The translations under genes were made by a program, and so were the position numbers. From the IMG/VR virus record IMGVR_UViG_3300042884_001268, positions 1 to 23,466 of that record: a stretch of DNA of 23,466 nucleotides; one strand, written 5' to 3'. How positions within the stretch are numbered: the first letter of the stretch is position 1; every line of letters begins with the position of its first letter. Below, one piece after another: positions 6,954-21,032 of this stretch. The notes beneath the pieces are model-generated. The model did no database searches, was not told the DNA's origin, and saw only the letters and a list, made by a program, of their open reading frames with translations. The DNA comes from a virus.

Positions 6954-7407
6954 TCTCGAGGAAGACGAAGGGCGGCCCGACCTCACCGATGATGCGGGCG
7001 ACATGCGGCCAGAGATGGCGTGGATCCTCGGTGCCGAGCCGTCGGCCCGCCACGCTGAATGGTTGGCACGGATAGCCCGCAGTGATGATGTCCACCGCGC
7101 CGCGCCACGGGCGGCCGTCGAAGGTTCCAACGTCGTCCCAGACAACAGTCTGATCCAGGGACGCGTCTTCCATCCGCGCCACGAGAGTGGCTGCGGCGAA
7201 GGTTTCCCGTTCGACATGGCCCACAGCACGATATCCGGGGATGGCGATGGTGAGGCCGAGGTCGAGCCCGCCAGCGCCGGAGCAAAGGGAGAGGCCGAAG
7301 AGACATGCATCTGCGGCTCCGGAGCCAAGTCCGGAGGAAGGTAAAGCCAGGTCATGCATGTCACGCGGCGGCTTCGGGTTGGGATTCTTCAGGCGCGGCC
7401 GGGGCAT
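6178..7407 (-). CDS. DNA (cytosine-5-)-methyltransferase
   Basis: A 409-residue C5-cytosine methylase of the Dcm type. Visible motifs are I (LSLCSGAGGLDLG, 39-51), IV with the catalytic Cys (GYPCQPFS, 111-118), VI (ENV, 151-153), VIII (KRERLFILA, 190-198) and X (LCGNGVVP, 384-391). Between VIII and X, where the target-recognition domain should be, the protein is instead rich in LADA/DADG repeats and looks disordered. These repeats come from a DNA word that also encodes WPTP in the +1 frame. ATG at 7407 is the farthest start; ATG at 7359 gives 393 residues and lies one base after the upstream methylase stop (TGA-C-ATG), so it may be the real one. No restriction enzyme is adjacent, so it is probably an orphan protecting phage DNA. 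Confidence 0.92.
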   Translation of the reverse strand: MPRPRLKNPNPKPPRDMHDLALPSSGLGSGAADACLFGLSLCSGAGGLDLGLTIAIPGYRAVGHVERETFAAATLVARMEDASLDQTVVWDDVGTFDGRPWRGAVDIITAGYPCQPFSVAGRRLGTEDPRHLWPHVARIIGEVGPPFVFLENVAHHLRLGFSEVAAGLVGMGYRLAAGLFTAAEVGAPHKRERLFILAIREGDELADPARLLWHPVEWREPDGTAASLAHAEGECQREPADQTHAVAGSGAARVEPSDDGSTLADAADRQLPQPGWRAEGREGSGPDGARLADADGERRMQAERGQPSVGRSDPCSGHVDDADGAGSQGRGDDTGEHAGERPAWPPGPGDADGWERYLRCAPDLEPAVRRGADGLAHRVDRLRLCGNGVVPLVAAHALRTLAAELLADG

Positions 7408-8704
7408 CCCCCAGGCGCTCAGTCCTCACCTGCGCGAAGGTCCGACCGTCGCCGTCGAGGATTGCGTCGCGTCCCGTGTCGGCCTGCCAGCGTTCGACGG
7501 CGACATCGATGTAGGCCGGGCTGATTTCCATCGCGAAGACGCGACGGCAATTCGCTTCGCCTGCCATGATCTGCGACCCGGAGCCCGAGAACGGTTCATA
7601 GCAGAGACCGCCCCGCGCCACATGCTGGCGCATCGGGATCCCGAACGCATCGAGTGGCTTCGGCGTCGGGTGGTCGGGCCGGTCGTCCTTGGCGAAGCTG
7701 GGCAGCGCCCACGTCGACGGCAGGGTTTCCTCGGCCACCTTGGGCGGACGGTTCGGGCGGCGCCAGCCCATGAAGCATGGCTCGTGCTTCCACAGGTAAT
7801 GCGAGCGGGTCAGAACCCCGCGGTCCTTCACCCAGATGATCTGCTGGTGCACAAATGCCCCGGCTTTTTCCCAGCAGGCCTCGAGCATCGCCTGGCGGCG
7901 CGAGGCGTGCCAGCAATACCACGCAGCATTGTCAGCGATGGCCTCCGCCACGGCGGCCGCGATGAAGCCGTCGTAAAGCTCGGCCCCCTGCGAACTGTCG
8001 TCCCAGGTCGTGCCATAGGATGCCGACCAGTCCTTGTTGCGGGTCGGATGATTCGAACCGTCGTAGTCGACGAGGTAAGGCGGGTCTGTCGCAAACAGGA
8101 TCGCCCGTTCGCCATTCATCAGACGACGTACATCGGCAGCGCTGGTCGAGTCCCCGCAAAGCAGCCGGTGATCGCCGAGGATCCAGAGATCGCCCGTCCG
8201 CGAGGCCGGATTGCGCGGCGGTTCGGGGATGGTCACCGGCGGCACCGATCCCCCGGCACCACCTTCTTGTTCGTCCCTTTCCGGAACAAAGGCCAGCAAC
8301 TTGTCCAACTCGCCGTCCGAAAAGCCGACCAGTGACAGGTCGAAATCCTCGGCCAGAAGCGTGTTCAGTTCGGCCGAGAGCAATGCCTCGTCCCAGGTGC
8401 CAAGCTCGGTCAGCTTGTTGTCGGCGATCCGATAGGCCCGGCGTTGGGTTTCGGTCAGGTGCCCAAGCACGATAACCGGCGCTTCGGTCAGCCCTAGTTG
8501 GGTGGCGGCGAGAACCCGGCCATGGCCCGCGATCAACTCGCCGTCCTCGGCCACGAGGCACGGCACGGTCCAGCCGAACTCGGCCATGCTGGCGGCGATC
8601 TTCGCCACCTGGTCCGCGCCATGCGCCTTGGCGTTACGTGCGTAGGGCTGGAGCCTGGCCAGCGGCCACATCTCGATCCGATCCGGGGCAAAGCTCAGCG
8701 TCAT
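7361..8704 (-). CDS. ParB-like nuclease / DNA N4-N6 methyltransferase fusion
   Basis: A 447-residue two-domain protein. Residues 8-115 form a ParB/sulfiredoxin-like domain (AGHGRVLAA at 59-67, RAYRIADNKLTE at 89-100) that probably binds DNA. Residues about 170-410 are an amino-methyltransferase with DPPY at 207-210 followed later by the SAM-binding FSGSG at 372-376, the beta-class order. Such fusions are common in prophages and methylate adenine N6 or cytosine N4 without a cognate nuclease. The ATG at 8704 is chosen: it starts the conserved domain, has GAGGA upstream (somewhat long spacing), and leaves the repeat block at 8755-8806 non-coding. The frame is open back to 8812. It lies directly upstream of the C5 methylase and is probably co-transcribed with it. 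Confidence 0.93.
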   Translation of the reverse strand: MTLSFAPDRIEMWPLARLQPYARNAKAHGADQVAKIAASMAEFGWTVPCLVAEDGELIAGHGRVLAATQLGLTEAPVIVLGHLTETQRRAYRIADNKLTELGTWDEALLSAELNTLLAEDFDLSLVGFSDGELDKLLAFVPERDEQEGGAGGSVPPVTIPEPPRNPASRTGDLWILGDHRLLCGDSTSAADVRRLMNGERAILFATDPPYLVDYDGSNHPTRNKDWSASYGTTWDDSSQGAELYDGFIAAAVAEAIADNAAWYCWHASRRQAMLEACWEKAGAFVHQQIIWVKDRGVLTRSHYLWKHEPCFMGWRRPNRPPKVAEETLPSTWALPSFAKDDRPDHPTPKPLDAFGIPMRQHVARGGLCYEPFSGSGSQIMAGEANCRRVFAMEISPAYIDVAVERWQADTGRDAILDGDGRTFAQVRTERLGDAPAAPEESQPEAAA

Positions 8705-8754
8705 CAGCGGGTCATTCCTCGGATCAGGGTGGATACCCTTGGCTTCCGGACTCC

Positions 8755-8806
8755 GGGGTCCAGACTGGACTCCACGCGGGGTCCAGCGGCCACCGGGGGT
8801 GTCCAG
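8755..8806. repeat. Four copies of GGnGTCCAG upstream of the methylase operon
   Basis: GGGGTCCAG occurs at 8755-8763 and 8778-8786, GGTGTCCAG at 8798-8806, and an inverted copy CTGGACTCC at 8765-8773. The first and inverted copies form a near-perfect 9-bp dyad with a 1-nt centre. The block sits 50-100 bp upstream of the methylase start, where operators would be expected. The repeats are seen directly; a regulatory role is inferred. Confidence 0.5.
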
Positions 8807-9093
8807 CTTCAAGGATTTGATTTTGCGTTGTTTCAGGCCGGTTCAGGCGGCGGTGGCTTCCGGGTGGCTTCCCAAAAATCCGGCCCTGTCGCTAGCGATA
8901 TGTCGCGCTTCGCCCGCCAGCATACGAATGTCGCCAGGAAGGAACCAGAAATCAGTGGGTTAGCGGGACGGATGCCGATTGGACCCTGCCCGGACCCCGG
9001 AAGCCAGCTCCGGTGTCCACCTCGCGATCAGCAACGGTTCATCCGAGCGCACGACCCCGAGTATATCGGTATTGATAGCCAATGGCGGTTGAT

Positions 9094-9131
9094 TTGTCTC
9101 GTTGTCCGTTGTCTCGCGGAAAGTTGTCTCG
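9094..9131. repeat. Three direct repeats TTGTCTCG at 15-bp period
   Basis: TTGTCTCG begins at exactly 9094, 9109 and 9124, so the period is 15 bp, and a related TTGTCCG lies at 9102-9108 within the first unit. Regular spacing argues for a protein-binding array (operator or iteron) rather than chance. It lies about 100 bp upstream of the putative promoter of the gene at 9254. What binds there is unknown. Confidence 0.6.
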
Positions 9132-9200: not shown

Positions 9201-9229
9201 TTGGCGTCGCGGCTTAAATCTGATATGTT
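9201..9229 (+). promoter_or_regulatory. Putative sigma70-type promoter for the gene at 9254
   Basis: TTGGCG (9201-9206) and TATGTT (9224-9229) are separated by exactly 17 bp and lie 25 bp before the ATG at 9254. Both boxes match the consensus only moderately. The position suits a constitutive, prophage-state promoter. Confidence 0.4.
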
Positions 9230-9253: not shown

Positions 9254-10258
9254 ATGAACGTTGGTCTCGCGACTCGTCGCGGTGGCCGCATCAGCTCAGT
9301 TGGCAAGAAAATCGGCATGAAACCACCAACTATCAAGGCATTACCCGTCAAAAGCGATGGGAAGGAAATCGGCCAAGGTGTTCTTGATCTCGGCATTGAA
9401 AAGGATACCGAGATCAATGGAATCGGTATGGGTGTGCTTTCCAATGGCACGCCATACTTGAATCAGCGTGGACTTGCCGCGCTGTGTGGCGTCCAGAACG
9501 CCCACATCGGGACGATCAGTTCTCAGTGGGACGAACCGGATCCAAAGCCAAGGATCAGGGCCATCAAGGGCATATTGTCCAAGATCGGCCTTGAGGCCCC
9601 CGCCGCCCATATTGAAGTGCCGCACAACGGAGTGGTGCACTACTGCTATCCAGCAGAAGTGTGTCTGGCGATCCTCGAGTACTATGCGTTCGACGCTGGT
9701 ACGAACTGCCAGCCAGAGGCACGGGACAATTTCCGTATCCTAGCCGGCACGAAACTTCGCGAGATGATCTACTCGCAGGTCGGTTACGACCCGACCGGTC
9801 GCGCGCGTTTCGACAAATGGCATGAGAGGATTGCTCTGAACTATCAGTCTGCTCCGCGGGGCTTTTTCAGCGTGTTCAACGAAGCCGAGACGCTGATCTA
9901 TGAGATGATCGTTGCGGGCGCGCCAGTCGACGAAAAGAACGTTGTCGATATTTCGATTGGCCTGCATTGGTCGAAGTTCTGGGACGAGAACGGCTTCAAT
10001 GAGCGGTTTGGCGATCGCAGCAAGTTCCCTCACCGGTATCCGGATAGCCACCCACAGGCAAAGTCAAACCCTCAGGAAGCGTGGTGCTATCCGCTCGAAG
10101 CATTGGGTGCGTATCGAGAGTGGCTGCAGGACCACTACATCGGCGGGGGAAAATTCCGCAAGTACATCAACGATAAAGCGAAGAAAGGCACTATTGCACC
10201 CTCAATTGCCCAACTTACGATTGCAAAGATCGAGACGCCGCAGATCACTGGCTACTAA
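9254..10258 (+). CDS. Prophage protein, possibly BstA-like abortive infection factor
   Basis: A 334-residue soluble protein read against all its neighbours. Residues about 58-115 (IGMGVLSNGTPYLNQRGLAALCGV onward in the same helix-rich segment) look like a KilA-N/antirepressor-type DNA-binding N-domain. A conserved-looking core follows with PAEVCLAILEYYAFDAG (133-149), LREMIYSQVGYDP (168-180), GFFSVFNEAE (203-212), VDISIGLHWSKFW (231-243) and QAKSNPQEAWCYPLEALG (268-285). From memory this resembles prophage proteins of the BstA abortive-infection type; I could not test it by search. The coding looks less GC-rich than its surroundings and it has its own upstream promoter and repeats, as lysogenic-conversion genes do. 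The start is uncertain: no good ribosome binding site precedes the ATG at 9254, and an ATG at 9317 is an alternative. Its stop overlaps the convergent DUF6362-like gene. Confidence 0.7.
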   Translation: MNVGLATRRGGRISSVGKKIGMKPPTIKALPVKSDGKEIGQGVLDLGIEKDTEINGIGMGVLSNGTPYLNQRGLAALCGVQNAHIGTISSQWDEPDPKPRIRAIKGILSKIGLEAPAAHIEVPHNGVVHYCYPAEVCLAILEYYAFDAGTNCQPEARDNFRILAGTKLREMIYSQVGYDPTGRARFDKWHERIALNYQSAPRGFFSVFNEAETLIYEMIVAGAPVDEKNVVDISIGLHWSKFWDENGFNERFGDRSKFPHRYPDSHPQAKSNPQEAWCYPLEALGAYREWLQDHYIGGGKFRKYINDKAKKGTIAPSIAQLTIAKIETPQITGY

Positions 10259-10677
10259 GCAGTCCGGCTAATCACGAACCCCATAGAACGCTTGCGCGGC
10301 ACCTGGTTTCCATTCAGCCGCCAAACGATCACAGCGATGCCGTATTGCCACCGGCGGTTGGCCGTTGCCCTGCTGATGCCGAGTTCCCAGCAGATCGGCT
10401 TCCAAGGTTTCCGGTTGGCCCGAAGCCATAGGAGCCGCGAATCGTCGGGATCCAGCCAGCGTAGCCAAAGCAACGTCTCCTCGGCTTGGGTGATCTGGCG
10501 CGGGCTGGGCTTTGGCCGCCGCATCTGAGGCTGCTGGCCGACCTTGTCAGCAAAACTGTGGAAGTATTCAGGCCAGGCGTTGAAGTAGCCCTGCGGCTTG
10601 CCCTCGGGCAGCATGCTGAAAACATCGGCGGCGCTTTCGAGCCGCGCGTCTACCGTGGCTGGCGTCCATTCAACCAT
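10255..10677 (-). CDS. DUF6362-like phage protein
   Basis: A 140-residue protein of the DUF6362 type found in alphaproteobacterial prophages. It begins VEWTPATVDARLESAADVFSML, has a middle with YFNAWPEYFHSFADK, and ends in a helix-turn-helix-like segment (RKPWKPICWELGISRATANRRWQYG, about 100-124) suggesting DNA binding. GGGAGG lies seven bases before the ATG at 10677, which fixes the start although the frame is open to 10848. It overlaps the upstream 66-aa gene by 8 nt. At its 3' end the stop codon overlaps the stop of the convergent gene by 3 bases. Function unknown; a small regulator or packaging/replication accessory is possible. Confidence 0.8.
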   Translation of the reverse strand: MVEWTPATVDARLESAADVFSMLPEGKPQGYFNAWPEYFHSFADKVGQQPQMRRPKPSPRQITQAEETLLWLRWLDPDDSRLLWLRANRKPWKPICWELGISRATANRRWQYGIAVIVWRLNGNQVPRKRSMGFVISRTA

Positions 10678-10870
10678 TGGCGGCCTCCCGGCTATCAGCG
10701 CGTTGGCCATAGAGCTTGTCACCAAGTTGGCGGACCAGTTCGCGTTCCGGCCAGGTGAGCCGGGGATCGTCGACCGACACCGCGAGCAGACCTTGGTCAT
10801 GCCAACCGTCTTGCTTGACCTGCTCAGGGTCACGGCGCGTGCCGCCATAGCCTCGGGGGTGCCACCTCAT
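10670..10870 (-). CDS. Small phage protein, 66 aa
   Basis: A 66-residue basic protein without recognised domain, with Arg/Gly-rich start (RWHPRGYGGTRRDPEQVKQ) and a helix LTWPERELVRQLGDKLYG. Its ATG overlaps the resolvase stop by four bases (ATGA), and it overlaps the next gene by 8 nt, so it is an integral member of this three-gene string. This packed arrangement is the main reason to call it real. Function unknown. Confidence 0.65.
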   Translation of the reverse strand: MRWHPRGYGGTRRDPEQVKQDGWHDQGLLAVSVDDPRLTWPERELVRQLGDKLYGQRADSREAANG

Positions 10871-20438: not shown

Positions 20439-21032
20439 TCAAGCCGCCCGTGAACCGTCCCACTGCACCCCGAACCCGCGCATCGCGAGATCGAGCCGCA
20501 ACTGGGCGATGTGCCGGTAAAGGGCGGAACGGGAGGTGCCGGTGCGGCCGACGATTTCTGCGATTGCGCAGGTGCCAAGCGCAGCGCACAGAGTGCGCGC
20601 ATCTTCGGGCAGATCGCCCAGTACGCGAGCAAGGTCATGGCGGAGATCGGCATCCTCGGTCGCGCTCAGGTCCCGGCCATGCCAGGCGGCCAGACCGTCA
20701 GCTTCCGCCAACAGGCAGCCCAGCGGCTCCGTCCCGCCAGCGATGGGTGCGTCGAGCGACAGCACGGTCCCGCCTTGCGCACGGCGCTGGCGATGGTGCT
20801 GTATCGCGATCCGCGACGACTGGTTGCGCAACACGATATTGGCAAATGCGCCGATACTGCCGCGACGGGAGTCGAAGCTGGGCAAACGGCAGATCAGATC
20901 GATCAGCAGATCTTGCCGCAGATCATCAATATCTGCGGCGGGCAGCACCAACTTGCGGTGCAGGCGGCGCGCAGCAACGGCTGCCTCGGCGATCAAAGTG
21001 GAAAGGTCGGCGGGGGAAATCGGGGGGTGCAT
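20439..21032 (-). CDS. Phage-encoded sigma70-family (ECF-like) factor
   Basis: A 197-residue protein with a region-2-like half (DIDDLRQDLLIDLICRLPSFDSRRGSIGAFANIVLRNQ, residues about 34-70; the DDLRQDLL core and the GSIGAFANIVLRN helix are the promoter -10-binding part). Its region-4-like half, LGDLPEDARTLCAALGTCAIAEIVGRTGTSRSALYRHIAQLRLDL, contains a helix-turn-helix for -35 recognition. Such small sigma factors occur at the head of early operons in rhodobacteral prophages; their targets are unknown. ATG 21032 follows GAGG. The 130-nt region upstream holds an 11-bp-period repeat array and two inverted repeats. It is first in a leftward chain of at least twelve genes that it may help express. 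Confidence 0.82.
   Translation of the reverse strand: MHPPISPADLSTLIAEAAVAARRLHRKLVLPAADIDDLRQDLLIDLICRLPSFDSRRGSIGAFANIVLRNQSSRIAIQHHRQRRAQGGTVLSLDAPIAGGTEPLGCLLAEADGLAAWHGRDLSATEDADLRHDLARVLGDLPEDARTLCAALGTCAIAEIVGRTGTSRSALYRHIAQLRLDLAMRGFGVQWDGSRAA

What the first reader, a model, noticed from the sequence alone, without database searches (positions are those of the whole stretch)
9254..10258. Lone rightward prophage gene resembling BstA-type abortive infection proteins
The gene is transcribed against the surrounding leftward genes, appears less GC-rich, has its own promoter-like boxes and repeat array, and encodes a protein with a putative KilA-N-like N-domain and a conserved core (LEYYAFDAG, SNPQEAWCYP). 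These are features of prophage-encoded defence genes expressed during lysogeny. Known BstA loci also carry a cis-acting self-immunity element at the 5' end of the gene; here a short dyad CGCGA/TCGCG lies at 9268-9281 within the first codons. The BstA link is from memory.
Basis: partly seen in the sequence, partly recalled or inferred. Interest (0 to 1): 0.7.

Follow-up and report, generated by a model that had tools for sequence, protein, structure and literature searches.

The report
BstA prophage defence gene with self-immunity DNA
The gene is a real member of the BstA family, with which a dormant virus guards its bacterial host against other viruses, and its start carries a pair of DNA repeats 57 bases apart that is probably the 'do not attack me' tag; such 56- or 57-base pairs recur across much of the family, and one version also sits in viruses where no BstA gene was found.

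Summary
Confirmed: the lone rightward gene encodes a BstA homologue (PADLOC BstA E=2e-116; PHROG 6287 E=3e-84; about 40% identity to BTP1 BstA). The start is more likely ATG 9317 (313 aa) than 9254. The locus is conserved in Rhodobacterales prophages, with its own promoter-like region instead of lying behind a repressor gene.

The better candidate is a direct repeat, AAGAAAATCGGC (9305-9316) and AAGGAAATCGGC (9362-9373), 57 bp apart around the start codon. This is the layout of the only mapped aba (BTP1: two CCCGCC, 56 bp apart, both essential).

The layout recurs in the family: 56/57-bp repeats in about half of divergent loci (7 of 14 held-out loci; 2.6% of random windows). The repeat sequence is lineage-specific and follows the N-terminal domain (partial r 0.55), not the C-terminal one (0.05), as expected of a cognate code.

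The alphaproteobacterial version, with its interior pattern, also occurs in about 24 places not attached to bstA; none of the 23 such contigs tested holds bstA. These may be portable BstA-immunity tags. Binding and function are inferred.

The parts
9317..10258 (+). bstA homologue, 313 aa; N-terminal KilA-N-like DNA-binding domain, C-terminal BstA domain
   Evidence: PADLOC BstA E=2.2e-116, PHROG 6287 E=3.4e-84; alignment with BTP1 BstA; AlphaFold mean pLDDT 90.6; start choice
   Evidence: 62% identity to the extension in L005 against 94.6% for the rest; in L006 the only in-frame start is the 9317 equivalent
9305..9316 (+). candidate aba, repeat copy 1 (AAGAAAATCGGC), abutting the start codon and overlapping the Shine-Dalgarno position
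   Evidence: extended repeat 9301-9316
9362..9373 (+). candidate aba, repeat copy 2 (AAGGAAATCGGC), 57 bp downstream, inside the gene
   Evidence: copy 2 Glu and Ile codons are GAA 19/19 and ATC 19/19 in relatives against 45% and 62% elsewhere in the gene
9317..9361 (+). interior of the candidate aba, with the partly conserved ATCAA..TTAC..AAA pattern
   Evidence: interior columns CA, TT and C.AA are enriched at the same places in non-bstA places that were chosen by the end repeats alone
9201..9229 (+). promoter-like TTGGCG-17-TATGTT, the likely bstA promoter
   Evidence: aligned in relatives; below the threshold of the consensus scan
9094..9131 (+). three TTGTCTCG repeats, 15 bp apart; probable regulator-binding array in the divergent intergenic region
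7361..8812 (-). neighbour: DNA methyltransferase with ParB-like N-terminal domain, divergent from bstA
   Evidence: PHROG 498 E=2.5e-125, PHROG 620; Pfam N6_N4_Mtase
10255..10848 (-). neighbour: DUF6362 protein, convergent with bstA
   Evidence: Pfam PF19889 E=1.2e-38

Best explanation
The locus is a BstA-aba prophage defence module of a Rhodobacterales-type phage. In the lysogen, BstA is made from its own promoter, against the direction of the phage genes around it. When another phage infects, BstA goes to the replicating phage DNA and blocks its replication, so the infection aborts (shown for BTP1 BstA, with defence also shown for Klebsiella and E. coli BstA, in PMC8585504; inferred here). 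When this prophage is induced, it is spared because its DNA carries a cognate aba element: two AAG(A/G)AAATCGGC repeats 57 bp apart around the bstA start codon, plus a conserved interior. [quoted passage not shown] Shown here: family membership, the repeat pair, its fixed 56/57-bp spacing across much of the family, lineage-specific repeat sequence, constraint at the DNA level, and covariation of repeat type with the N-terminal domain. Not shown: binding, defence, immunity.
For: BstA profiles. Alignment with BTP1 BstA and other BstA proteins. Published aba: 63 bp, two CCCGCC repeats whose point mutation abolishes immunity, DNA-based, cognate (PMC8585504). Spacing peak at 56/57 only: 110 loci; 35 and 16 protein clusters; position fixed relative to the gene; held-out loci 7 of 14 against 2.6% of random windows. 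Own-locus repeat match 54% against 2.8% between loci. Repeat type follows the N-domain (partial r 0.55, p at most 0.0005), not the C-domain (0.05, p 0.14). Synonymous constraint in copy 2. In 31 of 65 loci copy 1 lies upstream of every possible start codon, and 56 bp is not a multiple of 3, so a peptide repeat does not explain it. Window repeat p=0.00025 by shuffling at 56/57.
Against: No experiment on this protein or this DNA. About half of the divergent loci lack a repeat that passes the threshold, so the rule is not universal or their repeats are short. Copy 1 in the window has one mismatch to copy 2. Within the alphaproteobacterial clade the two copies do not change together significantly (p=0.09). 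N-domain and aba are adjacent, so shared recombination could produce part of the covariation. No solved structure matches the model. The record is a fragment; whether the phage is active is unknown.
Confidence: 0.85

Rival explanations
1. The repeat pair is an operator for control of bstA expression (by BstA itself or a phage regulator), not an immunity element.
For: It lies at the start of the gene, overlaps the Shine-Dalgarno site, and the N-domain covaries with its sequence, which fits autoregulation too.
Against: For BTP1 the same kind of repeats was shown to be needed for immunity supplied in trans from a plasmid (PMC8585504). Alpha-type elements also sit in contigs where no bstA is found, away from any bstA promoter. 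Both roles could coexist.
Confidence: 0.12
2. The element is primarily a phage DNA-replication site (origin-like or regulatory) that BstA has come to recognise; bstA loci and phages without bstA both carry it for replication.
For: Several copies not attached to bstA lie in replication genes: D5-like primase (L436), O-like replication initiator (L419), helicase-methylases (L446, L479/L445). BstA acts on phage replication (PMC8585504).
Against: Other copies are in a small ORF of unknown function, in no ORF (L467), or in unknown genes. The repeat sequence differs completely between BstA lineages. The BTP1 aba is not found in phage records that lack a bstA sequence.
Confidence: 0.15
3. The 57-bp repeat is a protein-level repeat (KEI..KEI) and the DNA similarity is a by-product.
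For: 57 is a multiple of 3, and most alphaproteobacterial copies read KEI or EEI in frame.
Against: Spacing 56 in many lineages; copy 1 often upstream of the start; GAA 19/19 and ATC 19/19; in L436, L392 and L388 the longest frame through the element is not the KEI frame.
Confidence: 0.03
4. The gene is a degenerate or silent BstA relic without defence activity.
For: At least one relative (L006) has its bstA split by about 3.45 kb of extra DNA.
Against: Intact 313-aa frame with the invariant family residues, 87-95% protein identity to the bstA of Rhodobacterales relatives, several of whose other phage genes are much less alike, conserved promoter region.
Confidence: 0.05

Closest known systems
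BstA-aba of Salmonella phage BTP1 (PMC8585504)
   Same: Homologous two-domain protein (about 40% identity over 87%); direct repeats around the start codon with nearly the same spacing (57 here, 56 in BTP1); prophage setting.
   Different: Repeat unit AAG(A/G)AAATCGGC instead of CCCGCC(A). Copy 1 abuts the start codon here, 28 bp upstream in BTP1. The gene has its own promoter-like region and is divergent between a methylase gene and a DUF6362 gene, not behind and sharing the promoter of a cI repressor.
BstA homologues of Klebsiella and E. coli prophages (BstA-Kp, BstA-Ec)
   Same: Same family; each reported to have its own cognate aba, whose sequence was not defined in the text read here.
   Different: Related loci found here carry other repeats (GGTCAGCA-like and GATCCC-like, 57 bp apart); the exact published strains were not checked.
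KilA-N / Bro-N / antirepressor phage proteins
   Same: Fold similarity, presumably in the N-terminal domain.
   Different: The C-terminal BstA domain and role differ; no Pfam family is hit.

Membership tests
BstA | Full-length similarity to the BstA profile | tested here: met
   PADLOC E=2.2e-116, profile positions 5-290 of 292; PHROG 6287 E=3.4e-84
BstA | N-terminal KilA-N-like DNA-binding domain | tested here: met
   Foldseek viral library: antirepressor, KilA-N and Bro-N proteins, best E=4.6e-4, low TM-scores over the whole chain; no Pfam hit; supportive rather than decisive
BstA | Location in a prophage | tested here: met
   Portal, terminase, primase-helicase and other phage genes in the window; related loci inside bacterial genomes
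BstA | Downstream of, and co-transcribed with, the prophage repressor (the common BstA setting) | tested here: not met
   Neighbours are a divergent methylase and a convergent DUF6362 gene. A common, not a defining, feature: 21% of the published homologues showed no phage genes nearby at all (PMC8585504)
BstA | Abortive infection / block of phage DNA replication | not testable with these tools
   Needs plating and replication assays
aba (anti-BstA) element | Short DNA across the bstA start with direct repeats at its ends | tested here: met
   9305-9316 and 9362-9373, spacing 57; conserved in relatives
aba (anti-BstA) element | Both repeats needed for immunity; works as DNA, in trans | not testable with these tools
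   Shown for BTP1 only (PMC8585504)
aba (anti-BstA) element | Cognate to its own BstA | tested here: inconclusive
   Repeat type differs by lineage and follows the N-domain; consistent with a cognate code but not a test of function

The most novel reading that the evidence does not exclude
The aba element is a definable DNA code: two lineage-specific repeats 56/57 bp apart, read by the BstA N-terminal domain. The alphaproteobacterial version also exists as a free-standing element in phages that appear to lack bstA, in linkers of replication genes, small ORFs or intergenic DNA, where it acts as a portable counter-defence tag that makes the phage insensitive to BstA.
Probability: 0.45. Interest if true: 0.88.

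Novelty: new member of a known kind. Interest (0 to 1): 0.68.

Why it matters
How BstA recognises aba, and what defines aba beyond the one mapped case, was left open in PMC8585504. A fixed-spacing repeat rule turns that into direct tests: predict the aba of many BstA loci, swap repeats between lineages on plasmids, and look for binding by the N-terminal domain. If the elements in contigs without bstA are functional, phages use the password of a defence system without carrying the system, which would explain part of why some phages are insensitive to BstA.

Tried and rejected
Single-strand hairpin in the candidate aba: folds no better than shuffles (z=0.70). Known RNA families in the window: none. 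Pfam, NCBIfam and PDB sequence hits for the protein: none useful. PDB fold search: nothing at E<=0.001; weak DdrC hits not used. Concerted change of the two copies within the alphaproteobacterial clade: p=0.09, not claimed. The alpha-type element in 372 alphaproteobacterial genomes: only the bstA-linked copy has the interior, the rest are chance pairs. The BTP1 aba in phage records: only at bstA loci. A viral scan with the Bradyrhizobium protein found nothing. An early note that a stop codon in L002 fixes the start was wrong: that frame is open; the start choice rests on L006/L011 and on conservation.

Full report
WHAT IS THERE. The window is a 23,466-base IMG/VR virus record classed as linear. 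It carries portal, terminase large and small subunits, two DNA methylases, a RuvC-like resolvase, a primase-helicase, a Dda-like helicase, a Cas4-type exonuclease and a Sak4-like annealing protein, all leftward. The finding is the one rightward gene between the methylase with ParB-like N-terminus (7361-8812) and a DUF6362 gene (10255-10848). Relatives of 85-93% identity lie in Rhodobacterales genomes and viral contigs (Rhodovulum, Tropicimonas, Frigidibacter, Cereibacter and others), more distant ones (66-69%) in Sphingopyxis and Bradyrhizobium. In the Rhodobacterales loci where the flanks are held, gene order and orientation are the same.

WHAT THE PROTEIN IS. It matches the PADLOC BstA profile over nearly its whole length (E=2.2e-116) and PHROG 6287, described as BstA (E=3.4e-84). 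BTP1 BstA is about 40% identical over 87%, and some 40 columns are invariant in a ten-sequence family alignment. AlphaFold on a 57-sequence alignment gives mean pLDDT 90.6. Foldseek finds phage antirepressor, KilA-N and Bro-N proteins (best E=4.6e-4) and no solved structure at E<=0.001.

START OF THE GENE. ATG 9317 is preceded by AAGAAAATCGGC, in most relatives AAGGAAATC plus three bases, a Shine-Dalgarno-like position.

UPSTREAM REGION. Three TTGTCTCG units 15 bp apart (9094-9131) are conserved as GTCTCG/GTCTTG-like units in the aligned relatives. A promoter-like TTGGCG-17-TATGTT (9201-9229) lies at fixed spacing in the alignment but scores below a consensus scan. PMC8585504 calls the usual setting, behind the repressor and presumably on its promoter, strikingly conserved; here bstA instead appears to have its own promoter. 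Lytic leftward transcription would run antisense through bstA; that this lowers BstA on induction is a guess.

THE SELF-IMMUNITY ELEMENT. PMC8585504 mapped aba of BTP1 to 63 bp (-29 to +34), with a terminal CCCGCC direct repeat; one base change in either copy abolishes immunity, and the element works as DNA. A direct repeat around the likely start codon, 9301-9316 and 9358-9373 (core AAGAAAATCGGC / AAGGAAATCGGC), has start-to-start spacing 57 (p=0.00025 by shuffling at 56/57) and is kept in relatives down to about 59% protein identity as RAGGAAATC-like copies. In copy 2 the Glu codon is GAA in 19 of 19 relatives and the Ile codon ATC in 19 of 19, against 45% and 62% in the rest of the gene (the sequences are related, so the combined p of 3e-11 overstates the evidence).

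A FAMILY-WIDE RULE. In 110 BstA loci, 7-base direct repeats in the 250 bp before the GxxMGVL motif pile up at spacing 57 (36 loci) and 56 (25) against about 1 expected per spacing. After clustering proteins at 70% identity, 12 and 7 of 35 clusters have a repeat of score 7 or more at 57 and 56, against 0.5 at other spacings; at 60%, 8 and 3 of 16 against 0.23. Copy 2 sits at a fixed place relative to the gene (SD 5.7 bp against 26 for control spacings), and the mean score peaks at 56 and 57 alone. A second collection, reduced to loci below 70% identity to every earlier one and to each other, gave 7 of 14, against 2.6% of random windows in the same loci. A peptide repeat cannot explain it: 56 is not a multiple of 3, and in 31 of 65 loci copy 1 is upstream of every possible start.

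A COGNATE CODE. Repeats match within a locus (54% at score 7 or more) but not between loci of different clusters (2.8%): CCCGCCA in Salmonella, CCGCCAG in Pseudomonas, GGTCAGCA-like, GATCCC-like, CAGGCCACC-like and others. Across 43 loci below 80% identity, repeat similarity follows N-domain identity given C-domain identity (partial r 0.55, permutation p at most 0.0005), not the reverse (0.05, p 0.14). Caveat: the N-domain is physically next to aba, so shared recombination could add to this.

ELEMENTS WITHOUT bstA. A scan of IMG/VR for RAGGAAATC-N48-RAGGAAATC gave 98 distinct sequences. Scored only on their 48-base interior with a profile from bstA-linked copies, 33 score above 0 against 0.22 expected from shuffles; nine of these are at bstA, about 24 are not. 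Independently of that profile, the 83 non-redundant places without bstA (chosen by end repeats alone) show enriched columns at CA, TT and C.AA, the positions conserved at bstA loci. These copies lie in a D5-like primase (L436, in another reading frame), an O-like replication initiator (L419), helicase-methylases (L446, L479/L445), a small ORF beginning MIRDPSDGS in six contigs, and in no ORF (L467). None of the 23 such contigs tested, about half of them 39-67 kb long, holds bstA, while both bstA-bearing controls were found. Contigs may be incomplete. In 372 alphaproteobacterial genomes the only copy with this interior was the bstA-linked one. The BTP1 aba was found only at bstA loci in phage records. 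I read these as possible portable immunity tags; a replication-site origin is the main rival.

WHAT IS SHOWN AND WHAT IS INFERRED. Shown by computation: membership, gene context, repeat pair, spacing rule, lineage specificity, N-domain covariation, elements in contigs without bstA. Taken from PMC8585504: defence by replication block, DNA-based cognate immunity in other members. Inferred: that this protein defends, that the repeat pair is its aba, that the N-domain reads it, and any role of the free-standing elements. In the open-access library searched, no paper describing the spacing rule or free-standing elements was found; subscription papers and preprints were not searchable.

Noticed in passing
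L436:8541, L419:2637, L446 (reverse, 422 from that end), L479/L445, L462:2332, L418:7146, L487:1692, L467 (reverse, 13387 from that end): Copies of the alpha-type repeat pair with the aba-like interior in virus contigs where no bstA was found, several inside replication genes.
   Followed up: partly
L006:5774-9226: bstA split by about 3.45 kb of extra DNA after residue 253; both repeat copies remain intact.
   Followed up: no
L058 (Salmonella phages S107, S135, S137): bstA reading frame is broken into two annotated ORFs while both aba repeats are intact; immunity may be kept without defence, or this is a sequencing error shared by related records.
   Followed up: no
window 9094-9131: Three TTGTCTCG units at 15-bp spacing, conserved in relatives; binding protein unknown.
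   Followed up: partly
L289 and L286: Exact 17-base and 15-base repeats at spacing 57 at the start of other BstA genes (AACAAAAATATCGCGGG; AAAAGAGATCACCCT), good candidates for bench work.
   Followed up: no
window 20439-21032 (-): Protein with weak sigma-70 region 2 similarity (Pfam PF04542 E=2.8e-5, just above its cut-off).
   Followed up: no
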